This document shows positions 47,784 through 60,717 of a stretch of DNA of 64,000 nt, in pieces (position 1 is the stretch's first letter; each line of letters starts with the position of its first letter). The notes below the pieces were generated by a model that was not told the DNA's origin, made no database searches, and worked only from the letters and a program-made list of their open reading frames with translations. A program made the position numbers and the translations under genes. Source of the stretch: an uncultured Latescibacterota bacterium (lineage in GTDB: Bacteria > Latescibacterota > UBA2968); assembly GCA_958295785.1 (NCBI GenBank), contig OY282377.1, forward strand, positions 5,334,896 through 5,398,895, read 5' to 3'.

Positions 47784-49961
47784 CTAAAAAAAATACACCT
47801 TGTAATTCAACCGCACATTGCGACCGGGTTCTGGCATGACGGAGCGGATGCGCGACAGGTGGTTGCGGTATTCGCGGTTGAAAAGGTTGTGGACCGAGAG
47901 CATTGCATTGTGCCGGGTGTGGGCGGTTTGGAAGTCGCGTTGTAAGAATGCGCCCAAGACGATGTAGCGATCCGTTGGGGTTTCGTACGTATCCACGCGC
48001 GTTTGCTTCGCGGCAAACTCGGCGGTCACTCCCAGCGCGAAAAAGGGAAAGCGATAGGCCACTTCGGCATTGAGTTTGAGCGGGGGCATTTCCGGCAGGG
48101 GCAGGCGATCATCCCGGTTTTGACCGCGCACATAGCTGCTGTTCAATTCCAAATTGAACCGCGCATCGGGCCGCCAGCCCACCTGCATTTCCGCGCCCAA
48201 AAATCGCGCGGCGATCCCATCGGCGGCGTAGATCGGCAAGAGTTGGGCAAAATTGATCTCCCCGGTATTGCGCGGGGCAATATAGGTGTCAAATTCATTC
48301 CAATAGCCGCTTAGGACAAAATCAAAGCCCGCTTGCAAATAGGAGAAAAACACTTCCACCCCCAAGCTCGTTTCCGCGTCGAGATCGACATTGCCCACCT
48401 CATACGTGTACGCGGCCAGGTGCGGGCCCTCGTTGTAGAGTTCTTCAATGGTGGGCACGCGCTGCGACCGGCTCAGGCTGAGGCCAGCATGCAACCCGTC
48501 GGACAGGGCCACGAGCGGGCTGATGGCCGCAGACCAGGTGTGAAAGGTGCGATCCACATCCGTGCCCACGCGGGTTTGGATATTGGGGCGCGGATCGAAA
48601 TTGGCATACATGTAGCGGGCCGCGGTTTGAAGTTCGAGTTGGCGATAGGTCCATTCGCGGTAAAGGCCGATGGTCGCGCTGTGCTTGCGCGTGGGTGGGG
48701 TGAAAACATACGCCCCCAGCTTGAGATCGTGGTGGTCAAAGCCGAGCGCGAGCGCGGTCTTGCGATTGGGGCCGAAATGCAACTTCAGATCGGCATTGTA
48801 ATTGTGAAACAGAAATTCCGAACCAATGTTGCCGCTGGATTCGTATTCAAAATGGTGATAGAAGGTTCTGGTAAAACTCGCTTCGACCTCATTGATCGCC
48901 GCGTGGTCAAGGGTGTACGCGGCCTTGCCGTCAAACACGCGGCGCAAAATATCCAAATCCGCGCCATTGGGATGCGCGCCGATAAAGCCGCCGGGTATGC
49001 CGTATTCGGTGTCGAATTGGTCATAAGACGCGCCGATATAGCCCCTGTGCGTGGGGTATGACAGGCCGAGCGTGTACGTGCGCGTGTCAATGGGTGTGTT
49101 GTCCAGTTTGCCAACGGGCGTTAGCATATCCCGCGTATCGCGGTACGTGGTTTCGGCGTACAGCGCGAGCGGGCCAATAGGCGTTGTTATTGACGCGGCG
49201 GAGAGATAGCCCCGATTGACTGTTTCTCCATACGCCCCCGCGCTGCCGGAAACGCGCTGCGGATGGACTTTGGGGATTTTGTGTTTGACCGCATTGATCA
49301 CGCCGCCAATGGCAGACGCGCTGTAGAGCAAAGTGCGCGGCCCTCGGATGATTTCGAGGCGGTGGATGCCAAATAGTTCCAGCGCGACCGCGTGATCCGC
49401 AGATGTGGCAGACAAATCGCGTGTGCGAATCCCATCCAAGTTGATCTGCACGCGGTCCCCACTCAGGCCGCGAATGACCGGGCGTGCGGACGCAGGCCCC
49501 ATGCTGCGAATGGCAACGCCCATTTCGCTCTTGATCGTTTCGGCAAGCGTGAGGCCGTATTTCTTTTTTAGTTCGTCTCCCTCGGTGATTTCGCGGAGTG
49601 CTTCAAAGCGGGTTTCGGCATTTTTTCCGACCACGTCGAGCGTATCCATCTCGATTTCCCACGCGGTCATTGCTATGTACAAGATGGGCATTTTCGCGTC
49701 GGAAACCGCGACTTCCCTGCGCGCTGTGCGGTAGCCAATGCGCGAAAAGGAGAGGTCGTGCGTGCCCGGGGGCAAGCGCAAGACAAACCGGCCCTGTTCA
49801 TCGCTCGTCGCGCCCACTGCGTCCGCATCCCATTTGATATTGACATTTTCAATCGTGCGTTGGGTTGCGCGATCAAACACATAGCCTTCGAGCAACACGG
49901 CCCCATCCGCCGCGCCGAGCGCGAGAATGCAGAATAGGGGAAAGAGGAGGGTCAATTTCAC
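47784..49961 (-). CDS. TonB-dependent outer-membrane receptor (probable metal uptake)
   Basis: The protein has about 725 residues. It has a signal peptide (MKLTLLFPLFCILALGAADG, read from GTG), a carboxypeptidase-regulatory-like N-terminal domain (VLLEGYVFDRATQRTIENVN), a plug domain (GVAIRSMGPASARPVIRGLS, DRVQINLDGIRT) and a C-terminal barrel ending NYKVYFF with a terminal aromatic. His-rich barrel segments (TFYHHFEYES, GFDHHDLKLG) and the two small upstream proteins point to a metal ion such as Zn, as in ZnuD-type receptors; this is inference. The start is uncertain: a longer frame overlaps the lipoprotein gene. Confidence 0.88.
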   Translation of the reverse strand: MKLTLLFPLFCILALGAADGAVLLEGYVFDRATQRTIENVNIKWDADAVGATSDEQGRFVLRLPPGTHDLSFSRIGYRTARREVAVSDAKMPILYIAMTAWEIEMDTLDVVGKNAETRFEALREITEGDELKKKYGLTLAETIKSEMGVAIRSMGPASARPVIRGLSGDRVQINLDGIRTRDLSATSADHAVALELFGIHRLEIIRGPRTLLYSASAIGGVINAVKHKIPKVHPQRVSGSAGAYGETVNRGYLSAASITTPIGPLALYAETTYRDTRDMLTPVGKLDNTPIDTRTYTLGLSYPTHRGYIGASYDQFDTEYGIPGGFIGAHPNGADLDILRRVFDGKAAYTLDHAAINEVEASFTRTFYHHFEYESSGNIGSEFLFHNYNADLKLHFGPNRKTALALGFDHHDLKLGAYVFTPPTRKHSATIGLYREWTYRQLELQTAARYMYANFDPRPNIQTRVGTDVDRTFHTWSAAISPLVALSDGLHAGLSLSRSQRVPTIEELYNEGPHLAAYTYEVGNVDLDAETSLGVEVFFSYLQAGFDFVLSGYWNEFDTYIAPRNTGEINFAQLLPIYAADGIAARFLGAEMQVGWRPDARFNLELNSSYVRGQNRDDRLPLPEMPPLKLNAEVAYRFPFFALGVTAEFAAKQTRVDTYETPTDRYIVLGAFLQRDFQTAHTRHNAMLSVHNLFNREYRNHLSRIRSVMPEPGRNVRLNYKVYFF

Positions 49962-50037
49962 AATGGACTCTTTATGAAACAAATGGACGGAATAGCAAAG
50001 CCATCCCGTCCAAAGCCATGTGGTGTGCGTGCGTTGC

Positions 50038-50505
50038 TTATGGCGCGACATGCACGGGAAGGGGCACTGTGCGGAAGTCTGCGTGGCCATCGTGGTTGAG
50101 CAACAGTCTCATGGTGGTCTCTCCTGCTTTGAGGCCGCGCAGGTGAAATTCAAACTTGCCTTCGTCCCCGGGATCTTGGACGACTTCGACTATGCTGGTA
50201 TCGGCGATGTCCCAGCCAAGGGTGTAGTCGGGATCATTCGGGGGGTCGATTTCATTGCCATTTCCGTCCAAAAATTTGACGCTCCAATGGGCGGTCAGGC
50301 CAATAGGTGATTGGAGGTGATCCATCCGGCCACCACCGGCATCAATTTGCCCCTGAAAATAGCGAAAGAACCGATTGCCGGAGTCAATGAGGACCAATCC
50401 CTCGGCTTCGAAATGTTCTTCCTGCGAGGACACGGGATCATCACTGCCACAGCCGACCGCAAACAGGGCCAGCACTGCCAAGAGGTATTGCAATCTAAAA
50501 AACAT
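50038..50505 (-). CDS. Lipoprotein partner of the TonB receptor
   Basis: The protein has 155 residues. MFFRLQYLLAVLALFAVGCG is a lipoprotein signal with lipobox AVGC followed by SDDP. The mature part is beta-rich and contains HWSVKFLDGNGNEI, LGWDIADTSIVEVV, LRGLKAGETTMRLLLNHDG and a terminal HADFRTVPLPVHV. Several His residues could bind metal. It directly precedes the TonB receptor (about 76 bases) and follows the His/Cys-rich gene, so the three are probably one operon. AGGAG precedes the ATG. Confidence 0.78.
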   Translation of the reverse strand: MFFRLQYLLAVLALFAVGCGSDDPVSSQEEHFEAEGLVLIDSGNRFFRYFQGQIDAGGGRMDHLQSPIGLTAHWSVKFLDGNGNEIDPPNDPDYTLGWDIADTSIVEVVQDPGDEGKFEFHLRGLKAGETTMRLLLNHDGHADFRTVPLPVHVAP

Positions 50506-50944: not shown

Positions 50945-51430
50945 TCAAGTCTCCTCGGCGAGTTCCAGAACAATCTGACGAATCCTGGGGTTTAGCCGGA
51001 ATCGCAACATCTGTAAACGATCCAGAACAGGCTGAACCGCGTAGAGAATGCCTCGCTCTTTTGCCCGCAACAAGATGCCCAATGTGCCAGAGACCTCCAA
51101 TTTCAGAAAACTTGCATACCGACGGGCATCTCGGTCATCCAAGAGGAGCAGTGCGTCCTTTGCTTCCAGTCCCAATGCGAGAACTTCTTTCTCGCCAGCC
51201 CCGAGATACGCCACCGAGGGCAGCAACGTCCGATCACGTATGGACCGCACGTTTAGCCAAGAAAATTCCTCCACAATAGGCAGAGGTATATTTCGACGCT
51301 GGCCCTCTTTCAACTCTGCCACCACCGCATCGGGGACATACACTTGCTCGACAAGCGCGGGCAGGAGTTCCAACACGCCGGCCTGATGCAAGTACTGTAA
51401 TGGAGACGTATTACAAATGACGTCGGGCAC
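50945..51430 (-). CDS. DUF3368-type PIN-like toxin
   Basis: The protein has 161 residues. VICNTSPLQYLHQAG at the N-terminus carries the first acidic/asparagine position of PIN-like nucleases (N in CNTSPL), VYVPDAVVAELKEG the second, and LLLDDRDARRYA the acidic DD pair. These proteins are RNase-like toxins, usually paired with UPF0175 antitoxins. The GTG start overlaps the antitoxin gene by 20 bases, which is the standard TA arrangement. Confidence 0.85.
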   Translation of the reverse strand: MPDVICNTSPLQYLHQAGVLELLPALVEQVYVPDAVVAELKEGQRRNIPLPIVEEFSWLNVRSIRDRTLLPSVAYLGAGEKEVLALGLEAKDALLLLDDRDARRYASFLKLEVSGTLGILLRAKERGILYAVQPVLDRLQMLRFRLNPRIRQIVLELAEET

Positions 51431-51677
51431 TGGTCAAATCCCGTTGGAGTTCTTCCTTGGTCAGTTGGAACGCATCCATGCCATAGTCGGCCAATTTCAT
51501 CAGAAACAGGGGCTTGGGGATGTCGGCCAGTTTGGCCGCGGCCCCCGAAGACAAACGTCCCAACTCGTAGAGTTTGATGGCAACGAGGATTTTCGCCTCT
51601 TCCTTGAACTGCTTTGGAGACAATCCCAGGGCCAGCAATACATCATCGCCGTAATCAATGGTCAAAGTTTGCTTCAT
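51411..51677 (-). CDS. UPF0175-family antitoxin
   Basis: The protein has 88 residues. LLALGLSPKQFKEEAKILVA followed by IKLYELGRLSSGAAAKLADI is the UPF0175 signature (helix, then an HTH-like segment). MKLADYGMDAFQLTKEELQRDL closes it. It should bind and neutralise the DUF3368 toxin and repress the operon. AAGGAA precedes the ATG at 51677. Confidence 0.85.
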   Translation of the reverse strand: MKQTLTIDYGDDVLLALGLSPKQFKEEAKILVAIKLYELGRLSSGAAAKLADIPKPLFLMKLADYGMDAFQLTKEELQRDLTSARRHL

Positions 51678-51695
51678 CGCGTTGTTCCTTTCCAC

Positions 51696-51958: not shown

Positions 51959-53023
51959 CTAAAACGCCTGACTCGCGTTTTTGCGATGTAGGATGAAGCC
52001 GATCACAATGGGCGCGCCAATCAGGGATGTCACCGCATTGAGGGGCAAGGCATAAGGGCTGCCCGGCAAATGGGCAATCAGATCGGCCAACAGCGCCAGC
52101 GTCGCGCCCAAGCAGGTAACGGCGGGCATCAATGCGCGATGGTCGGATGTGTGCAACAGGCTGCGGCAAAGATGGGGCACGGCCAGGCCTAAAAACGCAA
52201 TCGGCCCGCAAAACGCCGTGGTCGCGCCTGCCAAAATGGATGCGTTGACCAAGACCCACACGCGGGCGCGTTTGACATTCAACCCCATGCTGCGGGCGTA
52301 ATTTTCCCCGAGCAACAGCGCGTTGAGCGGCTTGACACACAAAAACGCCAGCAAAAGGCCCAGGAAAATCGCCGCCGTGAACACGGGCATTTGCCGCCAT
52401 GTCACGCTGCCAAAACTCCCAAACGTCCACAAAATATACGATTGGATTTGTTCGGGAATGGCAAAATAAATCAGAATGCTGACAAAGGCCCCGGTCGCAT
52501 ACCCAAACATCAGGCCCAGAATGAGCAGGGTCATCGCGCTTTGCACCCGGGCGGAAATGAGCAACACGCACCCGAACACGGCCCCTGCGCCCAAGCTGGC
52601 AGCGGCGACCAAACTCAGATCGCCCAAAAGGCCCAAGCCAGCGATGAGCACGCCGCCGACCGATCCCACAGTCAGCACCACAATAGCAACGCCCAAGCTG
52701 GCACCCGCATTGATGCCCAGCACAAAGGGATCGGCCAAGGGATTGCGAAAAAGCGTTTGCATCTGCAACCCGCTCACCGAAAGCGCGGTGCCAGCCAGCA
52801 CAGCGGTCAGGGCTTTGGGCAGGCGAATGGTGTGAACAATAATCGCCCAGGCGGGAACAGACGCATCGCCGCCTGCGAGAATGCCCAGCAGATCGCCCAA
52901 CGGAATGCGAACCGACCCGAGGGACAAACTCAAACCGAACGCGATCAAGAGCAGCAGAAATAACCCGAGCGCGACAATGCGCCGAGACATCCTCTGCGTT
53001 TTATGTTCTATTGGTAGGGACAT
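51959..53023 (-). CDS. btuC: BtuC/FecCD-type ABC importer permease (cobalamin uptake)
   Basis: The protein has 354 residues with about 10 TM helices. Family landmarks are SVRIPLGDLLGIL, HTIRLPKALTAVLAGTALSV, GLQMQTLFRNPLADPFVLGI and, near the end, GPIAFLGLAVPHLCRSLL in the loop that contacts the ATPase. It forms the inner-membrane channel for cobalamin or siderophores; the riboswitch operon assigns it to cobalamin. The ATG at 53023 is chosen, though MSRR at 52990 has a slightly better ribosome site. It is the last gene of the operon, 140 bases after btuD. Confidence 0.9.
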   Translation of the reverse strand: MSLPIEHKTQRMSRRIVALGLFLLLLIAFGLSLSLGSVRIPLGDLLGILAGGDASVPAWAIIVHTIRLPKALTAVLAGTALSVSGLQMQTLFRNPLADPFVLGINAGASLGVAIVVLTVGSVGGVLIAGLGLLGDLSLVAAASLGAGAVFGCVLLISARVQSAMTLLILGLMFGYATGAFVSILIYFAIPEQIQSYILWTFGSFGSVTWRQMPVFTAAIFLGLLLAFLCVKPLNALLLGENYARSMGLNVKRARVWVLVNASILAGATTAFCGPIAFLGLAVPHLCRSLLHTSDHRALMPAVTCLGATLALLADLIAHLPGSPYALPLNAVTSLIGAPIVIGFILHRKNASQAF

Positions 53024-53088
53024 GGCGATGTGTGGGGTTAGGATCAAGGGTCAGGGGTCAGTCCCCGCCCTGTTAGGAAAAAATAAAA

Positions 53089-53118
53089 TGTAGGGGCGGT
53101 GCCTCCGTGCCCGTCCAA
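53089..53118. repeat. Intergenic palindromic repeat inside the B12 operon
   Basis: TGTAGGGGCGGTGCCTCCGT followed by GCCCGTCC. It lies between btuD and btuC, flanked by GGTCAGTCCCCGCCC words. Confidence 0.7.
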
Positions 53119-53163
53119 AGCAGTCGTCAGTAGTCAAGGGTCAGTCCCCGCCCGAAGCAGTTG

Positions 53164-54186
53164 TCAATCCCGATTCAGACCCCCCAGCGACGCGATCAAT
53201 TCGTAAATGGACGGGCATTCTCGAATCGCGCCATCGCGCTCTACGCGCCAAGAGCGGGGCTCGCCTTCCCGTATTTCGATGTGGCAAGCCGATTCTGCAT
53301 CTGTCACGCGAAACCCGGCGCGTTCGAGTGCGTGCTTGGTCCAATAAGCGGCTCGCCCCTGTCCCGAAACCGAAATAGCGGAACGCCCGAGGTGCGCGTT
53401 GAGCACAAACGCGCCCGTATCCGCGTCAAAACGCGCGCCCTCGCTTTGGAACGCGCCTTCATAAGCCCCGTTGAGAATCAGATCTTCGGGCGCGCCGGTT
53501 TGCAGCGCGCCATCCATGGGCAGAAGACATAAGCGGTCTGCACAGCGCAAGGCCAAGGCCAAGTCGTGTGTGGAGAGCAGGATCGCTTTGCCGGTGGCGT
53601 GTGCGAGATTTCGCAACAAGGCCATGATTTCCACGCGGCGGGGCAGGTCGAGAAAAGCCGTGGGTTCATCCAGAATCAGAAGGTCGGGCTGTTGCGCCAG
53701 GGCGCGGGCGATCAGGACTTTTTGACGCTCTCCATCGCTGAGTTCGGCCACATTGCGATGCGCGAGATGCGCCGCGCCCGCGGCCCGAAGCGCCCATAAA
53801 ACGGCCTGTTCATCTTCATCTGTCAGGCGTCCGATCCAATTGGTATGGGGGTATCGCCCCAAAGCGACCAAATCGCGTGCCGACACAATGCCGATGCCGA
53901 TGCGGTCTGTGAGCACCACGCTGAGCATGCGCGCCACTTCGGTTGCAGACAGATCCGCGAGGGCTTTGCCCATGAGACAGACCCGGCCATTGAGCGGCGG
54001 TTGCATGCCCGCAAGCGTGCGTATCAGCGTGGATTTGCCCGCGCCGTTGGGCCCGAGCAAACACACAAATTCACCGCGCTCGAGCGACATATTTATTTTG
54101 CAGGCCACAACGCGACGCGGGCGAAGGTAGCCCACAGCGAGATTTTGGGTTATGAGAACGGGGTCTTTCACGGGTTGTATTTCCAT
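53164..54186 (-). CDS. btuD: BtuD/FecE-type ABC importer ATPase with C-terminal extension
   Basis: The protein has 340 residues. Walker A is LGPNGAGKSTLIRTL, the Q-loop region follows, the signature is AELSDGERQKVLIARAL, Walker B is LLILDEPTAFLDL, and the H-loop is LLSTHDLAL. About 90 residues follow the ABC domain (from VLNAHLGRSAIS to IYELIASLGG), longer than E. coli BtuD, with an ACT-like beta pattern; their role is unknown. It powers BtuC. A TTG start overlapping cobO is possible; the ATG at 54186 is preferred for family alignment. Confidence 0.9.
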   Translation of the reverse strand: MEIQPVKDPVLITQNLAVGYLRPRRVVACKINMSLERGEFVCLLGPNGAGKSTLIRTLAGMQPPLNGRVCLMGKALADLSATEVARMLSVVLTDRIGIGIVSARDLVALGRYPHTNWIGRLTDEDEQAVLWALRAAGAAHLAHRNVAELSDGERQKVLIARALAQQPDLLILDEPTAFLDLPRRVEIMALLRNLAHATGKAILLSTHDLALALRCADRLCLLPMDGALQTGAPEDLILNGAYEGAFQSEGARFDADTGAFVLNAHLGRSAISVSGQGRAAYWTKHALERAGFRVTDAESACHIEIREGEPRSWRVERDGAIRECPSIYELIASLGGLNRD

Positions 54187-54238
54187 TGCAAAAACAAAAT
54201 CGCCAGACCCGTTGCGAGGTTTTGGAACTCGTCCATTG

Positions 54239-54793
54239 TCAAAAATCAATCCCCGGCTGGGCGACGATGTCCTGATCGCGAAACGGATGCTTGATCTCCC
54301 GCATCTCGGTCACCAAATCGGCATGGGCGATCAACGCTTCGGGCGCGTTTCGGCCCGTAATAATCACATGCAACATCTCGGGCTTGTTCTCGCGCAGCCA
54401 GTCCACGACCTCTGTCGCATTCAACCAGCCAAAATCCATCAAATACGTGAACTCGTCCAAAATAAACAGATCGTATTCCCCGCTCGCAATGCGCGCCTGA
54501 GCCAGTTCCCAACCGCGCAATGCCCGCGCCTGCGTTTCGCGGATATCCTTGCTCTGCCACGTCCATCCATCCCCCGTGCCCATCCAGTCAATTGCCATGC
54601 GTTTGGCTGCGCGAATTTCGCCAAAATTGGCGTTCTCGTGCTTCAAAAACTGAATCACCCCCACGCGCATCTTGCGGCCCCATGCGCGCGTCATCACCCC
54701 CAGCGCGGCTGTGGTCTTGCCCTTGCCATCGCCGGTATTGACAATCACCAGTCCCTTTTTGACGTGCTGCTTGCGCCTTTGCTCTCGGCTCAT
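54239..54793 (-). CDS. cobO: Cob(I)yrinic acid a,c-diamide adenosyltransferase
   Basis: The protein has 184 residues. The P-loop [19 protein letters not shown] is the CobO/BtuR/CobA signature; [33 protein letters not shown] and [20 protein letters not shown] follow the family. It transfers adenosyl from ATP to Co(I) corrinoids, making the coenzyme form. In the B12 uptake operon it completes salvage of imported cobalamin. AGGAGG precedes the ATG; the stop abuts the btuD region. Confidence 0.96.
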
Positions 54794-54818
54794 AAAATCC
54801 TCCTTTGCGGGCCTGCTA

Positions 54819-54850
54819 TTCGGGCGGGCACGGGGGCCGCGCCCCTACGA
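54819..54850. repeat. Intergenic palindromic repeat inside the B12 operon
   Basis: TTCGGGCGGGCACGGGGGCC then GCGCCCCTACGATTGCC, located between the propeller gene and cobO. Confidence 0.7.
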
Positions 54851-54896
54851 TTGCCTTTTGTTCATCTGCGGATCGCCTTTAGGGGGCAGGGTTCGT

Positions 54897-56138
54897 CTAT
54901 TCGTTGAAAGCGGAAACAAAAATCAGAAAATCGGGAAAATCAACCGCGCCATTGCCATTGAGATCAAACATCGCGTCAAAATCCCCATCGCTCGCGGTTT
55001 TGCCAAACGCGCCGACAAACGCCATAAAGTCGCCAAAATCAACCACGCAATCGCCATCAAAATCCGCAGCACTGCCCACAAATGCAATATCCGAAGGCGG
55101 CAGCCCAGTGCTGATGGGACCGGCGACGAGTTGATCGGTATGCACATCGAAAATTTTCACACCGGCAGATGCGGGATCGGTAAAACTGCCTTGGTCCAAA
55201 ACATATAACCGGCCGGCAAACGCGCCCAAACCGGGGACGAACCCGCCCGAAAGTCCCTCCAAACGCGGGGACACAGACCGCGTCGCCAAATCGAAGCGTT
55301 TGACCATATTGGCGAAATTTGCATCTGTGACAACGACATACCCCTCGCTGTTGGAAACCATTGCCAGAGAACTCAAATTGCCGCCCAAAGCCATCTCGCC
55401 AAGCGCGATGCCCTCGCTTCTCAAATTTGCCAGATCGATCACTTCGATCCCTCCATCCGTCAAGTCCGCAAACGTATTGACATGGCTCAATATCCACTTG
55501 TTGCCGCGTTGCGCCGCGCCTACGGGATTCTTGCCCGCCATTGCAATCCCCTGCACGCCCGCCGCGTTCTCATCCACATCCACCACCTGATCGGTTGCCA
55601 CATCGACGACCGCAATCGCCGAGGCATCTGTCGGCACCCAGTCATTGTCTCGATCCAGACGCTGACACGCGACAAACAGGCGATTGCCGTACAGCGCGAG
55701 TTGAAACATCTCGGGCAAGCCATCCGCATCGGCAAATCCCGCCAGATCGACCGCGCCGAGCGAATCGCCCGTCACTGGATTGACAATCAGCAATTGCGTG
55801 CGTCCATACCGCGAAATATACGCTTTGCCCTCGCTGACAAACGCCATATCACTCGGATTGCTGCCATTGCCAGTCGAATACTGCGTCACGGGCGTTTTCA
55901 AATCGCCGCTGTGCAGAACGATCACATTGTCCTGTCCCCGCCGGTTGATCACATACACCTCGTCCCGATAAACGCGCACCACGGCATCGGAGTGAATCGT
56001 CAGGTGATCGCGGGTTGCGACATGCGTCTGCAAATCCAAACGCGACAGGCTACCACTATTGTAATCCGTCGTGGTGACAACCGCCTGATTTGCCAGTACA
56101 TCTGTCGCAAAAAATAAAACAACCAAAAACCGCTTCAT
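54897..56138 (-). CDS. Secreted beta-propeller in the cobalamin operon (BtuG-like candidate) with C-terminal dockerin-type repeats
   Basis: The protein has 413 residues. After a signal peptide (MKRFLVVLFFATDVLANQ), repeated blades run to about residue 345 (YVINRRGQDNVIVLHSG, AYISRYGRTQLLIVNP, LFVACQRL, YVVVTDANFANMVKRFD, LYVLDQGSF). Two Asp-rich repeats end the protein: DFDGDCVVDFGDFMAFVGAF and DLNGNGAVDFPDFLIFVSAF. In Bacteroides, BtuG surface propellers bind cobalamin and pass it to BtuB; position between btuB and cobO under a B12 riboswitch suggests the same role here, but no lipobox is present and homology to BtuG cannot be checked by eye. GGAGG precedes the ATG. Confidence 0.78.
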   Translation of the reverse strand: MKRFLVVLFFATDVLANQAVVTTTDYNSGSLSRLDLQTHVATRDHLTIHSDAVVRVYRDEVYVINRRGQDNVIVLHSGDLKTPVTQYSTGNGSNPSDMAFVSEGKAYISRYGRTQLLIVNPVTGDSLGAVDLAGFADADGLPEMFQLALYGNRLFVACQRLDRDNDWVPTDASAIAVVDVATDQVVDVDENAAGVQGIAMAGKNPVGAAQRGNKWILSHVNTFADLTDGGIEVIDLANLRSEGIALGEMALGGNLSSLAMVSNSEGYVVVTDANFANMVKRFDLATRSVSPRLEGLSGGFVPGLGAFAGRLYVLDQGSFTDPASAGVKIFDVHTDQLVAGPISTGLPPSDIAFVGSAADFDGDCVVDFGDFMAFVGAFGKTASDGDFDAMFDLNGNGAVDFPDFLIFVSAFNE

Positions 56139-56464
56139 TGCATCCTCCTTAGATAAAATTGACGAATCAGTGTATTCGTCGATTTGGACAGGCACGGGGG
56201 CCTGTCCCTACGGGTCTTATACGCAAGGGACCTGTCCCTATGGGTCTTATACCAAGGGGCCTGTCCCTATATCTGCTTCTATCTGCGTCCATCTGTGGAT
56301 ACGCTCACAAATTCATTGCATCCTCCTTAGATAAAATTGACGAATCAGTGTATTCGTCGATTTGGACAGGCACGGGGGCCTGTCCCTACGGGTCTTATAC
56401 GCAAGGGACCTGTCCCTATATCTGCTTCTATCTGCGTCCATCTGTGGATATGCTCACAAAAAAC
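56134..56464. repeat. Imperfect tandem duplication of the btuB-propeller junction
   Basis: Unit 1 (56134-56311) and unit 2 (56312-56464) share TTCATTGCATCCTCCTTAG, the hairpin GACGAATCAGTGTATTCGTC, palindromic repeat cores ending CCTGTCCCTA, and ATCTGTGGAT(A/C)...GCTCACAAA. Unit 1 has one extra CCTGTCCCTA block of about 29 bases. Unit 2 contains the last ten codons of btuB; unit 1 contains the ribosome site and start codon of the propeller gene. Confidence 0.85.
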
Positions 56465-58614
56465 GCCCGTCCCGGCAGGGGATAGCCCCAGGTGTCGGCG
56501 ATTTGTGAACCGCTCAAATTTTTGGCCTCCAACCCAATGCGAAATCGCTTTCCCACCGCTATTTTTACGCCCGCATTGTGAATGTGCCGCGCGGTTGATG
56601 GGCGGCGATTGGCGCGGTCGAGAAAATTGCCATCTTCAAACGTGTAATCGCAAAAAACCGTGCAGCGGCCCAGTCGCGTCGTGACGCGGGCAAAAAGCGC
56701 GTGGGGCGGGCGGTTGGGCAAGGTATTGCCGCTTAGATGGGGGATAGCGGATTTGTCTTTGGCGCGTTGAAACGTGTAGTTGCCCGACAGATTGACGCGA
56801 GAACCCAAGCGTTTTTGTGCGGTGATTTCAAGCCCATGCACACGCGCTTTGCCGATGTTGACCGGGCGCGACGTGGCTTGTGACGTGTGGACAAATTGGA
56901 TCAAATTTTCATAGCGATGGTCAAAATACGCGCCCTCTAGCGCGGTCGTCTCGCCCGCATAACGCAGACCCGCGTCCCATGTGTGCCCGCGCTCGGGCAT
57001 GAGGTTGACATTGCCGATCACGCCGCCGCGGTCGCCAAAAAGTTCGTAAAAAGAGGGCACTCTGAACACGCGCCCGGCATTGGCTTTGAGCATCGTGTTG
57101 GAGGTCAGGTCCAAACGCACGCCCGACCGCAGGCTGGTCAGATGGCGCGTATTGGCTGAATCGGGCGCGAGCGGCGAAAAATTGAAGGGGTTGGCGCCGG
57201 TGAACGAACTGTGGATGCGGCGTTGTTCCACGCCGAAAGACCATAAGCCGATATTGTGCGGCAGCGAGAGGTCCAAGCGCGTGCGTGCAGACGCGATCCA
57301 CCGCCGACTGTCGAACAAATTGGCGCTGGTGCCGATGCGTGCCGTGGGCAAATAAGTCTCTCTGTGCAAGCCAACCACAGCCGCAATATCACAGCGCGAA
57401 AAGAGATCGGTTTGCAGCCGACTTTGCCATCCGTACGTGCGCGTGCGGTAATCGTTGTCTTGGCGGCCAATCCCGATTTCGCCCTCCAAGTCCCGAAACC
57501 GCTCTTTGGTATGGGTAAAATAAAGCGATTGGCGCAGGGTCACGCCGCGCAACAGGGCGCGATCTCTGTATGCAATTTCGGTAAAGGTTCGGAAGGCGTC
57601 TAGTTGTGCATGTTGCGATTGGTTATTGCCAATGCCGGGGATGCCCTGGCGTTTCCAATACGCGGTTTCTTGGATGGACAGGGTTCTATGCGGTCCGAAC
57701 GCACGCCGCCATTTGCCCAAAAAATTGACCGATTGGTGGGCGTTGTTCTGCCGATTGCGCCACGCATCGTCATCGGCATTGTATTCGGTGCCATTGTCGT
57801 CGAGGAATCCAAAATCGTTGTCGCTGTGTGCGTAATCGGTCACAAATAAAAATTGCGACTGCCCAACCCCGCCTGTGATCGCGCCGCTGAGTGCTCGCGT
57901 GTCAAACGACCCCCACGATCCGTGAATCCCGTGCGACCACTGCTTGTCGGTTGGGCGCGTACGCACATGCACCGCGCCGCCCAAGCCATTGCCACCTGCA
58001 CCGCGATAGATTTCAATTTGCCCGACGTGCGCGAGCGGCAGGTTGCTGAGATCCACGCCCCCGCCAAACGCGGCATTGAGCAACATGCCGTCGAGATAGA
58101 CTTTGACTTGAGCCGCTGATGACCCGCGCAGGGAAATCGCGCTGAACGCGCCCAATCCACCGAGGCGTTTGACCTGCACGCCTACGGCCTCGGCCAATAC
58201 ATCGGGCAATGAGGTTTCTCGGCCTTCAAAATGTTCGCGGGTGATCACGGTCGCATACGCCGGATGCCTGTGAATGTCGCCCGCCCCGATGGGATCCGCG
58301 ATGACCGAGAGTTCGTCGAGCGGAAGCGTTTTGGGGAAAAGCGCGATCAAAAGTTCGGTGGTTTCGGTCGTGCGAACCGTGCGCTCGGCCGGGTCGTAGG
58401 CCACATGGGATAGGGCGAGGGTGTAAGAGCCGGGCGGCAGATCGAAAAAGGAAAAGCGTCCCTCCTCATCCGTCTGAGTCGCAAACTCGGCATTGAGCAC
58501 GCGAACACTCGCATTTGCGAGGGGCATCAGGGTCTCTGCATCAACGACCCGCCCGACGATCTGCGCAGCCCAAAGCGGCGTGTTCAAGCAGAGAAAAAAA
58601 ATGATATAGCGCAT
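56428..58614 (-). CDS. btuB: TonB-dependent cobalamin receptor (BtuB-like)
   Basis: The protein has 728 residues. It has a signal peptide (MRYIIFFLCLNTPLWA), a carboxypeptidase-regulatory-like domain (IVGRVVDAETLMPLANASVR), a plug (SLPDVLAEAVGVQVKRLGGL, AISLRGSSAAQVKVYLDGML) and a 22-strand-type barrel with a late FRVPSFYELFGDRGG, a motif seen in BtuB-like and siderophore receptors. It imports a large ligand across the outer membrane using TonB energy. Its position under a cobalamin riboswitch gives the substrate. Its last ten codons lie in the duplicated junction block, and a BtuF-like gene precedes it. Confidence 0.9.
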   Translation of the reverse strand: MRYIIFFLCLNTPLWAAQIVGRVVDAETLMPLANASVRVLNAEFATQTDEEGRFSFFDLPPGSYTLALSHVAYDPAERTVRTTETTELLIALFPKTLPLDELSVIADPIGAGDIHRHPAYATVITREHFEGRETSLPDVLAEAVGVQVKRLGGLGAFSAISLRGSSAAQVKVYLDGMLLNAAFGGGVDLSNLPLAHVGQIEIYRGAGGNGLGGAVHVRTRPTDKQWSHGIHGSWGSFDTRALSGAITGGVGQSQFLFVTDYAHSDNDFGFLDDNGTEYNADDDAWRNRQNNAHQSVNFLGKWRRAFGPHRTLSIQETAYWKRQGIPGIGNNQSQHAQLDAFRTFTEIAYRDRALLRGVTLRQSLYFTHTKERFRDLEGEIGIGRQDNDYRTRTYGWQSRLQTDLFSRCDIAAVVGLHRETYLPTARIGTSANLFDSRRWIASARTRLDLSLPHNIGLWSFGVEQRRIHSSFTGANPFNFSPLAPDSANTRHLTSLRSGVRLDLTSNTMLKANAGRVFRVPSFYELFGDRGGVIGNVNLMPERGHTWDAGLRYAGETTALEGAYFDHRYENLIQFVHTSQATSRPVNIGKARVHGLEITAQKRLGSRVNLSGNYTFQRAKDKSAIPHLSGNTLPNRPPHALFARVTTRLGRCTVFCDYTFEDGNFLDRANRRPSTARHIHNAGVKIAVGKRFRIGLEAKNLSGSQIADTWGYPLPGRAFFVSISTDGRR

Positions 58615-58681
58615 AAAAGCAGTGGTCAGTGGTTAGTGGTCAGTCCGCTCCGCCCATCTGCCCAAAGGCGAGACACAGGAC

Positions 58682-58709
58682 CGTAGGGACAGGCCCCTGT
58701 GCCTGTCCG
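58682..58709. repeat. Intergenic palindromic repeat inside the B12 operon
   Basis: CGTAGGGACAGGCCCCTGTG followed by CCTGTCCG, between btuF and btuB; TCAGTGGTTAGTGGTCAGT precedes it. Confidence 0.7.
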
Positions 58710-58715
58710 ACCAAA

Positions 58716-59876
58716 TTACGGATCGAGTTTTCGATAGTATTTGAGTTGGTGGTCTGGCAACAAGTTGGGATGTAGAATTTTGATGATGTCCGCCAAGAGC
58801 ACATCGGGTTCCATCAGCCCGGTTTCCCAATAGTCATTGCCGCCGTATTTGTTGAGCCGCGCATTGGCGTTGAAAATTTGCCCGGTTTTGAAGGCGGAGA
58901 ATTTTTTGTACCGCTCGTCCGCAGCCACCACATCGCTTCGAGACAACCACGCATTTTGCATGGTGATCCAGCAGTCCGCATCGTGCGCTTTTTCGTACAC
59001 CGTTTCAAAATCGAGCGATAAACTCTGTTGCGAATCGTCGTCTGCCCACAGGTAATTCGCACCCGCGTCTTTGAGCAGTTGCGCGGCGTACGTCTTGCCG
59101 CCAGACATAAACCATGTGCCGCGCCAGAGCGATCCGACAAAAACCGATGGTCGCGCGTCCGCCGGCAAATGTTGCGTCAACGCGCTACGCGCCTCATAGC
59201 GGACGACCAAGTTGTCAAATTGGGCAGATGCCAGTTCTTCTTTGTCAAAAAACGCGGCGACAAATTTGATCCACTCGGCGCGCCCAAGCAAAGAGGGTTC
59301 GGCATACGCGGCGTTCACGACAACGGACACGCCACCTTCTTGAAGCGCGAGATGGGCGTTGTCGGGCGCGTCTGTGATCACGAGATCGGGTTGGAGCACC
59401 AAAACTTTCTCCAGATCGATGGACATGCCCCGCCCAACTTCGGCCAATTCGCCCGCTGCAAAACGACTGTGAATGGCCTCTGAATTGACGTATTTGATGT
59501 TGTCTATCGCAACGAGACGCTCGAGTTCGCCGAGCTTTTCGATATGCGGCAAATGCGTGGTGGATGTCGCAATCAGGGTTCGCACGGGAATTTCAATACG
59601 CGGAACGCCTTCGTATCTATCGGGCGGCGCTTGCCCGCGCTGTATCAGAATATAGCGGAACGGTTCTTCTGCACCCGGTCGGGTCACGGTGACGACCTTG
59701 TAAGCGTCAAAATAATCCACCCGGAAACCGCGTGCATAGTGCAAATCCACTCGCGCTTGAATGGGCACAACCGCGCCCCAAACCGCGATACAGCACAGAA
59801 ATCGCATCCATCTTTTTGCCTTCAACACGGCGTTCACCTTTCGTTTTTTTCGAGTGGGCACGAGAGCACCAGTCAT
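58716..59876 (-). CDS. btuF: Periplasmic cobalamin-binding protein (BtuF-like)
   Basis: The protein has up to 386 residues. A signal peptide (MRFLCCIAVWGAVVPIQA) lies about 23 residues in, so the start may be the ATG at 59807. The body is the two-lobed helical-backbone binding protein (periplasmic binding fold III): IATSTTHLPHIEKLGELERL, LVLQPDLVITDAPDN, PSVFVGSLWRGTWFMSGGKT, YAAQLLKDAGANYLWADD. It delivers ligand to BtuCD. It is the first gene after the riboswitch terminator. Confidence 0.87.
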   Translation of the reverse strand: MTGALVPTRKKRKVNAVLKAKRWMRFLCCIAVWGAVVPIQARVDLHYARGFRVDYFDAYKVVTVTRPGAEEPFRYILIQRGQAPPDRYEGVPRIEIPVRTLIATSTTHLPHIEKLGELERLVAIDNIKYVNSEAIHSRFAAGELAEVGRGMSIDLEKVLVLQPDLVITDAPDNAHLALQEGGVSVVVNAAYAEPSLLGRAEWIKFVAAFFDKEELASAQFDNLVVRYEARSALTQHLPADARPSVFVGSLWRGTWFMSGGKTYAAQLLKDAGANYLWADDDSQQSLSLDFETVYEKAHDADCWITMQNAWLSRSDVVAADERYKKFSAFKTGQIFNANARLNKYGGNDYWETGLMEPDVLLADIIKILHPNLLPDHQLKYYRKLDP

Positions 59877-59907
59877 AACATTTTACCTATCGCTTTCATC
59901 CGCGGAA

Positions 59908-59936
59908 CGGGCGAGCACGGGGGCATCGCCCCTACA
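59908..59936. repeat. Intergenic palindromic repeat between riboswitch and btuF
   Basis: GGGCGAGCACGGGGGCATCG followed by CCCCTAC, located in the leader just downstream of the riboswitch terminator. Confidence 0.7.
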
Positions 59937-59993
59937 CACACTGCTCGCCTTTTGTGGCTCATCGCTTCTTGCGTCTTACCTTTTACCACGAAT

Positions 59994-60025
59994 AAAAAAA
60001 TCCCCGATTTCCTCGTGGAAATCAG
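59994..60025 (-). terminator. Riboswitch-controlled intrinsic terminator
   Basis: On the transcript strand CCCTGATTTCC, loop ACGA and GGAAATCGGGG form a strong stem (one mismatch) and are followed by seven T's. It stands between the cobalamin aptamer and btuF. Confidence 0.9.
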
Positions 60026-60090
60026 GGACATGGCGATGCGCGGCAACAGGCCATTGCCGAACCGCAGGCATTATCTCACCTATTTCCCAA

Positions 60091-60104
60091 TCCACGAGGA
60101 AATC
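60091..60104 (-). promoter_or_regulatory. Antiterminator strand of the riboswitch
   Basis: GATTTCCTCGTGGA on the transcript is a 14-base perfect complement of the loop and right arm of the terminator (60006-60019). Pairing would open the terminator. It lies right behind the aptamer's closing stem. Confidence 0.75.
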
Positions 60105-60111
60105 AATAAGG

Positions 60112-60270
60112 TCTGAGATTCAGGCAGGTCTTCTGGCTTCTGGAGCATCGCTTCTCGCGCCTTCCCAGCTTTTTGCCAGTGGCACACAATGCGAGAAACA
60201 TCTCCAGTTACAGCGGCGGGACCGCAACGGATTTTCACCGTTTTCCCTATTTGGCGACCTGAATCCGAGA
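60112..60270 (-). promoter_or_regulatory. Cobalamin riboswitch aptamer
   Basis: On the transcript strand the conserved elements occur in order: P1 strand GGATTCAGG, GGGAAAACGGTGAAAATCCG, then GGTCCCGCCGCTGTAACTGG, GCCACTGG(CAAAAAGC), GAAGCCAGAAGACCTGCC and closing P1 strand CCTGAATCT. This is the B12-box architecture of AdoCbl-type riboswitches. It sits between rpmB and btuF and must control the B12 operon. GGGTTGTCATAACCC just upstream is a small hairpin ending the rpmB unit. Confidence 0.95.
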
Positions 60271-60293
60271 GGGTTATGACAACCCGAGTTGTG

Positions 60294-60536
60294 TTACAGC
60301 GCGACTTCCTCCAGTGAAAGCCCCCGGTCTTTGAGAAAGGGCAAAAGCCCCTTTTTGTTCACCGTACGCAGTGCGCGAGCCGAGAGTTTGATCCGCACAA
60401 AGCGACCGAGTTCGGGCACGTAAATCCGTTTGCTTTTTAGATTGGGCTTTTGCACCCGCTTGACTTTGCGGTTGGAATGGGACACATGGTTGCCCGTGAG
60501 CGGTCCCTTTCCCGTGATGTTACAACGTCTGGCCAT
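60294..60536 (-). CDS. rpmB: 50S ribosomal protein L28
   Basis: The protein has 80 residues, MARRCNITGKGPLTGNHVSH followed by SNRKVKRVQKPNLKSKR, a standard L28 sequence with the single Cys kept but no CxxC zinc pairs. It binds 23S rRNA. AGGGGAT precedes the ATG at 60536; it follows rpmG by 16 bases in one operon. Confidence 0.97.
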   Translation of the reverse strand: MARRCNITGKGPLTGNHVSHSNRKVKRVQKPNLKSKRIYVPELGRFVRIKLSARALRTVNKKGLLPFLKDRGLSLEEVAL

Positions 60537-60552: not shown

Positions 60553-60717
60553 TTATCTGTCTTCCCGATAGAGCACATGCTTACGCAGTGTGGGATCGAA
60601 TTTTTTTAGTTCGAGGCGGTCGGGATTATTTTGTCGATTTTTTTCCGTGTGGTAATAGTGCGAACTTTCCGTGCTTTTCATTTTGATGAGTACGCGGTTG
60701 CCCTGTCGTTTGGCCAT
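60553..60717 (-). CDS. rpmG: 50S ribosomal protein L33
   Basis: The protein has 54 residues. [20 protein letters not shown] then [20 protein letters not shown] and [11 protein letters not shown] are the L33 sequence; the four zinc-binding Cys are absent, so this is the Cys-minus type. GGAGG precedes the ATG at 60717. It is the first gene of the rpmG-rpmB pair. Confidence 0.97.

What the first reader, a model, noticed from the sequence alone, without database searches (positions are those of the whole stretch)
51959..60270. Complete riboswitch-led cobalamin capture, import and adenosylation operon
Six minus-strand genes follow a B12 aptamer: BtuF-like, BtuB-like, secreted propeller, CobO, BtuD-like, BtuC-like. 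Sequence shows the aptamer boxes, P-loops, TonB plug and permease motifs; family knowledge gives the roles; grouping into one regulon is inference from strand, spacing and the single upstream riboswitch. Several gaps within it carry palindromic repeats that may act as mRNA stabilisers or partial stops.
Basis: partly seen in the sequence, partly recalled or inferred. Interest (0 to 1): 0.72.

Follow-up and report, generated by a model that had tools for sequence, protein, structure and literature searches.

The report
B12 uptake operon with BtuG-like lid
A bacterium related to the uncultured phylum Latescibacterota, which lacks key vitamin B12 synthesis genes, imports the vitamin with a riboswitch-gated operon; its one unexplained gene closely matches BtuG, the B12-grabbing lid reported only from Bacteroidetes, here secreted with a different anchor.

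Summary
An Rfam cobalamin riboswitch (109.7 bits, the only one in this 5.66 Mb genome) precedes six minus-strand genes: btuF, btuB-type TonB receptor, secreted propeller, cobO, btuD, btuC. The operon is an ordinary B12 scavenging system; the genome lacks CbiC and CobS but has MetH. A family profile places nine BtuG sequences first in the PDB (E 3e-11 to 6e-10; next fold 6e-3). A confident AlphaFold model (pLDDT 90.7) has BtuG as its 15 best Foldseek matches. BtuG is the B12-capturing lid of BtuB, reported as exclusive to Bacteroidetes. Here the family occurs in MAGs labelled Latescibacterota, Gemmatimonadota, Eisenbacteria, Krumholzibacteriota and Deltaproteobacteria. Of 58 loci with enough upstream sequence, 57 have a cobalamin riboswitch upstream. 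The surface anchor varies: dockerin-like tail (window), type-IX-type tail, or lipobox without tail. In this genus the riboswitch starts about 16 nt after rpmB and ends in a conserved terminator with a competing antiterminator. The intergenic palindromes are a genome-wide repeat, not operon-specific. B12 binding and lid function are inferred, not shown.

The parts
60106..60277 (-). Cobalamin riboswitch aptamer
   Evidence: RF00174, 109.7 bits, E 1.4e-26; only one in the genome
60092..60104 (-). Candidate antiterminator 5' arm GATTTCCTCGTGG, overlapping a small hairpin whose loop GGATT complements AATCC of the aptamer
   Evidence: 13-bp duplex with the terminator 3' side, -23.2 kcal/mol; equivalent pairing in 8 of 9 sequences compared
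60000..60029 (-). Intrinsic terminator of the riboswitch, followed by TTTTTT
   Evidence: 13-bp stem, only strong terminator-like site in the region; kept in all 9 sequences compared
58716..59876 (-). btuF-like periplasmic binding protein
   Evidence: PF01497, E 3.3e-23
56428..58614 (-). btuB-type TonB-dependent receptor with N-terminal CarboxypepD_reg domain
   Evidence: PF00593, PF07715, PF13620; best NCBIfam model TIGR01779 TonB-B12, 144 bits, below its cut-off; E. coli BtuB and B. theta BtuB among the PDB hits
56134..56419 (.). Direct duplication, two identical 108-nt copies 178 nt apart, with the dispersed palindromic repeat between them
   Evidence: repeat counted genome-wide
54900..56138 (-). 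BtuG-type secreted beta-propeller
   Evidence: profile against PDB: nine BtuG sequences first; AF2 pLDDT 90.7 and Foldseek top 15 all BtuG
54903..55067 (-). Dockerin-like (EF-hand) C-terminal tail of the propeller, residues 358-412
   Evidence: Dockerin_1 E 3.8e-4, EF-hand_1 E 1.6e-4, below the curated cut-offs
54239..54793 (-). cobO, corrinoid adenosyltransferase
   Evidence: PF02572 E 1.2e-61; TIGR00708 190 bits, above its cut-off of 167.75
54226..54236 (-). Possible remnant of the cbiZ start (ATGGACGAGTT) after cobO; suggestive only
   Evidence: compared with L032, where cbiZ and cbiB lie between cobO and btuD
53164..54183 (-). btuD-like ATPase
   Evidence: ABC_tran E 1.4e-28; best NCBIfam model PRK09536 corrinoid ATPase, 190.5 bits, below its cut-off
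51959..53047 (-). btuC-like permease
   Evidence: FecCD E 8.2e-74; best NCBIfam model PRK03784 BtuC, 184.8 bits, below its cut-off
60294..60536 (-). rpmB (L28), only copy in the genome, ends about 16 nt before the aptamer; probable source of read-through
60553..60717 (-). rpmG (L33), upstream of rpmB
   Evidence: PF00471 E 1.7e-16; same order in congeners

Best explanation
This is a corrinoid scavenging operon of a bacterium, related to Latescibacterota, that appears unable to make B12. Inferred mechanism: the secreted propeller sits on the outer face of the BtuB-type receptor as a BtuG-type lid and captures corrinoid; the receptor takes it across the outer membrane with TonB energy; BtuF hands it to BtuCD; CobO adenosylates it. 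In the window's relatives the lid carries a dockerin-like C-terminal tail instead of the lipid anchor of Bacteroides BtuG. Expression is gated by transcription attenuation: RNA polymerase, probably coming from rpmG-rpmB, reads the aptamer; with B12 bound the terminator at 60029-60000 forms, without it the antiterminator does. Shown here: gene content, riboswitch, conserved terminator and antiterminator pairing, BtuG-type fold and sequence kinship, conserved linkage to riboswitch and receptor, alternative anchors. Inferred: corrinoid binding, complex with the receptor, surface location, read-through from rpmB.
For: Riboswitch. Pfam/NCBIfam for the six genes. BtuG first in two profile searches of the PDB and ranks 1-15 in Foldseek with a confident model. 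Riboswitch upstream in 57 of 58 testable loci chosen by propeller pattern only, receptor immediately upstream in 52. No CbiC or CobS, MetH present. Terminator/antiterminator kept in relatives. CbiZ and CbiB in the same operon of congeners.
Against: The window propeller has no lipobox, which is a feature of Bacteroides BtuG, and no DUF5074 hit of its own. Identity to BtuG structures is 15-18%, and the sequence match rests on the profile; a single homologue found nothing in the PDB. BtuF, receptor, BtuD and BtuC all score below the curated equivalog cut-offs. Pocket residues could not be compared one by one. L051 has a propeller-receptor pair without a detected riboswitch.
Confidence: 0.78

Rival explanations
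1. The operon imports B12, but the propeller is a generic secreted propeller (YncE/surface-layer type) with another role, such as holding the receptor in place or binding the cell surface, and does not bind corrinoid.
For: Beta-propellers are versatile; the window protein alone has no propeller hit in Pfam; archaeal surface-layer propeller 1l0q ranks 16th in Foldseek with an E-value close to the BtuG ones; the lipobox is missing.
Against: BtuG leads both profile searches by many orders of magnitude over any other fold, fills Foldseek ranks 1-15, and the gene is tied to cobalamin riboswitch and BtuB-type receptor across many lineages.
Confidence: 0.17
2. The btu operon has its own promoter, inside rpmB or in the short gap, and does not depend on read-through from rpmG-rpmB.
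For: Promoters inside coding sequence are common, and the consensus scan covers sigma-70-type sites only.
Against: The scan lists no promoter-like site on this strand within rpmB or ahead of the aptamer, while two lie ahead of rpmG; the tight rpmB-riboswitch spacing is kept in the genus.
Confidence: 0.35
3. The receptor and ABC system carry haem or a siderophore and only happen to sit behind a cobalamin riboswitch.
For: The binding protein's best NCBIfam model is haem-type IsdE at 31.7 bits, far below its cut-off; siderophore receptor models score within about 20 bits of the B12 receptor model.
Against: Best models of receptor, ATPase and permease are all B12/corrinoid; cobO lies in the operon; congeners carry CbiZ and usually CbiB inside it; the riboswitch linkage holds across lineages.
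Confidence: 0.04

Closest known systems
BtuBG complexes of Bacteroides thetaiotaomicron (BtuG1-3; PDB 3DSM, 8OKV, 8P97/8P98, 8BMX, 8BMY; PMC10404256, PMC6143338)
   Same: Propeller fold and detectable sequence kinship; gene next to a BtuB-type TonB receptor in cobalamin-riboswitch loci
   Different: No lipobox in the window protein, dockerin-like tail instead; 15-18% identity; outside Bacteroidetes; ligand and complex not tested
E. coli BtuB-BtuFCD uptake pathway
   Same: Receptor, binding protein, permease, ATPase
   Different: E. coli has no propeller; here all parts and cobO sit in one riboswitch-led operon, and the receptor has an N-terminal CarboxypepD_reg domain
XusB xenosiderophore lid of Bacteroides (PDB 9HQE, 9HQK; PMC13142918)
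   Same: Surface propeller that serves a TonB receptor; appears lower in the Foldseek list
   Different: Ligand is a siderophore; 10-11% identity; not in the sequence-profile hits
CbiZ/CbiB corrinoid salvage genes
   Same: Present in the same operon of congeners
   Different: CbiZ not detected in the window's genome

Membership tests
Cobalamin riboswitch RF00174 | Match to the covariance model above the gathering score | tested here: met
   109.7 against 31.5 bits, full length 1-189
Cobalamin riboswitch RF00174 | Expression platform responding to B12 | tested here: inconclusive
   Conserved terminator and competing antiterminator; ligand response not testable
CobO/BtuR adenosyltransferase (TIGR00708) | Score above the curated equivalog cut-off | tested here: met
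   190.2 against 167.75 bits
BtuB (TIGR01779) | Score above the curated equivalog cut-off | tested here: not met
   Best model, but 144.4 against 599.7 bits; filed as BtuB-type by context
BtuC (PRK03784) and corrinoid ATPase (PRK09536) | Score above the curated equivalog cut-offs | tested here: not met
   Best models, but 184.8 against 334 and 190.5 against 537 bits
BtuG | Propeller fold like BtuG | tested here: met
   AF2 pLDDT 90.7, Foldseek ranks 1-15 all BtuG, best target TM 0.78; blade number not counted separately
BtuG | Sequence homology to BtuG | tested here: met
   Profile against PDB, E 3e-11 to 6e-10 for nine BtuG sequences; DUF5074 found in 4 of 25 family members but not in the window protein
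BtuG | Gene linked to btuB and a cobalamin riboswitch | tested here: met
   Window; 57 of 58 testable loci with riboswitch, 52 with receptor immediately upstream
BtuG | N-terminal lipobox (surface lipoprotein) | tested here: not met
   No cysteine in MKRFLVVLFFATDVLANQAVV; dockerin-like tail instead; other family members do have a lipobox
BtuG | Very high affinity corrinoid binding | not testable with these tools
   Needs purified protein
BtuG | Stable lid complex with BtuB | not testable with these tools

The most novel reading that the evidence does not exclude
BtuG-type B12 lids are not confined to Bacteroidetes but are a widespread partner of BtuB-type receptors in several environmental lineages, in which the same lid has been fitted with at least three alternative surface anchors (lipid, type-IX-type tail, dockerin-like tail).
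Probability: 0.72. Interest if true: 0.62.

Novelty: new variant of a known kind. Interest (0 to 1): 0.52.

Why it matters
BtuG was reported as exclusive to Bacteroidetes and discussed as an adaptation to competition in the gut (PMC6143338). Finding the same type of lid, riboswitch-linked, in environmental lineages questions that account and makes it testable: lid-assisted B12 capture could be a general solution for B12-dependent bacteria. The anchor swapping offers a natural experiment on how a TonB-receptor lid must be held.

Tried and rejected
Single-sequence AF2 of the propeller failed (pLDDT 36). Scanning genome contigs with the single sequence found nothing. A single lipoprotein-type homologue against the PDB gave no hit, so the BtuG link needs the profile. 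A zinc-starvation reading of the neighbouring rpmG-rpmB was dropped: the L28 gene is the only copy in the genome. Palindromes as operon-specific stabilisers were rejected. Apparent receptor-propeller fusions in L099 and L128 were rejected as overlapping open frames. No paper on BtuG in these phyla was found in the held library; most subscription papers are not covered, so this is no proof that none exists. A tree with Bacteroidota BtuG was not made, because no such sequences were fetched.
Full report
What is there. On the minus strand, a cobalamin riboswitch (60277-60106; RF00174, 109.7 bits, E 1.4e-26) is followed by btuF (58716-59876), a btuB-type TonB receptor (56428-58614), a secreted propeller (54900-56138), cobO (54239-54793), btuD (53164-54183) and btuC (51959-53047). 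Pfam and NCBIfam support the assignments. CobO passes its curated cut-off. The receptor, ATPase and permease have a B12 or corrinoid model as best hit but below the cut-offs, so their substrate is assigned from context. This is the only cobalamin riboswitch found in the 5.66 Mb single-contig genome.

The organism. Its closest named relatives by the propeller are MAGs labelled Candidatus Latescibacterota, some labelled Gemmatimonadota. It has no detectable CbiC and no CobS, while the same searches find them in 7 and 10 of the 14 control genomes. It encodes a 1218-aa protein of the cobalamin-dependent methionine synthase kind, a ribonucleotide reductase that scores just under the cut-off of the class II model, and a small corrinoid-binding protein of the methyltransferase kind (the naming of the first and last rests on the B12-binding hit, length and family knowledge). 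It therefore very likely depends on imported corrinoid.

The propeller. The protein alone matches only dockerin/EF-hand models, at its C-terminus. Relatives were found in 72 of 147 searched genomes, although many of the hits are to the tail only; full-length matches run through the phylum and into some more distant genomes. A profile of 25 of them (A1) against all PDB sequences gave nine distinct BtuG sequences as the nine best (E 3e-11 to 6e-10), with the next fold, WDR5, at 6e-3. A 53-sequence alignment drawn from named loci (A3) gave the same nine on top. The two alignments overlap in membership, so these are not independent tests. AF2 with A3 gave pLDDT 90.7 and pTM 0.86. Foldseek against the PDB returned 857 matches at E<=0.001, many from other propeller families, of which ranks 1-15 are all BtuG or BtuBG structures; an archaeal surface-layer propeller is rank 16, and XusB, NirF, Lp49 and YncE follow lower. 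That these entries are BtuG comes from the Foldseek descriptions and from PMC10404256 and PMC6143338 (3DSM).

Linkage. The 80 named loci were selected by a propeller peptide pattern only. A covariance model built from 16 earlier riboswitch hits found cobalamin riboswitches in 65 of the 80 loci, all on the propeller's strand. Of 58 loci with at least 3.7 kb upstream of the propeller, 57 have one within 5 kb upstream; the exception, L055, begins at a contig end about where the riboswitch would start. In 52 of the 58 the receptor gene is immediately upstream. In five of the other six besides L055's neighbours (L092, L097, L105, L106, L129) it lies further upstream or ahead of an extended propeller gene, and in L102 it follows the propeller. 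In the 20 unnamed loci, riboswitches were found in 16. L034, L037 and L043 are cut by contig ends; L051 is a true exception, with the propeller before the receptor and no riboswitch above threshold. The named records are labelled Latescibacterota, Gemmatimonadota, Handelsmanbacteria, Eisenbacteria, Krumholzibacteriota, Fermentibacteria, Deltaproteobacteria, Desulfosarcinaceae, Deferrisomatales and one Gammaproteobacteria bin. These are submitters' labels on MAGs and may include misbinned contigs.

Anchors. I classified 77 propellers by sequence pattern and corrected the pattern's calls by reading tails (Pfam on A1). About 15 have a dockerin-like tail (the window's relatives), about 45 have a FlgD/Por-secretion-type tail of roughly 100-140 residues, 7 have an N-terminal lipobox and nothing after the propeller, 8 have none of these (several with N-terminal extensions), and 2 are truncated. 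After correction, lipobox and C-terminal tail exclude each other; this correction was made by eye after seeing the output. The type IX core protein SprA is found in this genome and in 63 of the 64 genomes searched, so a type IX tail is plausible in the relatives. The dockerin-like tail also ends other proteins of this genome, and one cohesin domain passes its cut-off. How the tail holds the protein is unknown.

Regulation. 122 nt after the B12 box a 13-bp hairpin followed by T residues forms a terminator (-20.8 kcal/mol with flank). It is the only strong terminator-like stem in the 9-kb region and is present in all nine sequences compared, with changes that mostly keep the stem. An upstream arm, GATTTCCTCGTGG, can pair 13 bp with its 3' side (-23.2 kcal/mol), and an equivalent pairing remains in 8 of the 9 sequences. 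The arm overlaps a small hairpin whose loop GGATT complements AATCC of the aptamer. This fits the usual kissing-loop arrangement (own knowledge), but the letters do not vary, so it is untested. The L28 gene rpmB ends about 16 nt before the aptamer. In the five named congeners measured the gap to the start of my model is -10 to 15 nt, and L28 lies ahead of the riboswitch in L032 and L033 too. There is little room for a promoter and no sigma-70-like site was listed on this strand in rpmB, so read-through from rpmG-rpmB is likely but not shown.

Gene loss. Nine of ten congeners have CbiZ, and where the operon was read it is followed by CbiB, between cobO and btuD. CbiZ was not detected in this genome, and one congener locus (L010/L054) keeps only parts of both genes. 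None of the eleven genomes of this genus has a detectable CobS, so what CbiZ and CbiB do there is open. An 11-nt match to the cbiZ start remains after cobO in the window; this is suggestive only.

Repeats. The palindrome in the gaps (GGGACAGGCCCCCGTGCCTGTCC) matches 135 plus 137 times in the genome with up to two mismatches, largely the same sites read on both strands, against 1 plus 0 for the reversed control. It is a dispersed repeat, not a feature of this operon; whether single copies affect mRNA was not tested. A 108-nt direct duplication sits between btuB and the propeller.

Judgement. The operon as described is right and ordinary. The propeller makes it worth a second look: a BtuG-type lid outside the phylum to which BtuG was said to be confined (PMC6143338), with a different anchor. 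Because the lipoprotein feature was tested and not met, I call it BtuG-type, not BtuG.

Noticed in passing
47784-50505 (-): Downstream of the operon lie a second TonB receptor, whose best NCBIfam model is the zinc receptor ZnuD (209.9 bits, below its cut-off), and a 155-aa protein with a lipobox-like N-terminus and no family match. Relatives of both sit upstream of the btu riboswitch in L036.
   Followed up: partly
50945-51695 (-): Two small adjacent genes between the operon and the second receptor look like a type II toxin-antitoxin pair (PIN-like protein and UPF0175-like protein); named from sequence only, no family search was run.
   Followed up: no
53164-53400 (-): btuD carries about 80 extra C-terminal residues beyond the ABC ATPase domain, also present in congeners (L032, L033), without a domain match.
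   Followed up: no
L032:13820-15520 and L033:5653-7236: In congeners a secreted double Cache-domain protein with a type-IX-type tail sits in the btu operon between cbiB and btuD.
   Followed up: partly
L129:4669-6960: In a bin labelled Gammaproteobacteria the propeller gene appears to hold two propellers in tandem (the sequence ahead of the matched one ends like another propeller).
   Followed up: no
L051:6722-10281: A propeller-receptor pair in reversed order with no cobalamin riboswitch above threshold in 16.9 kb; its ligand may differ.
   Followed up: no
56134-56419: The duplicated 108-nt segment repeats the ribosome-binding site and start codon of the propeller, so that an extra start ATGAATTTGTGA with an immediate stop lies upstream.
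   Followed up: partly
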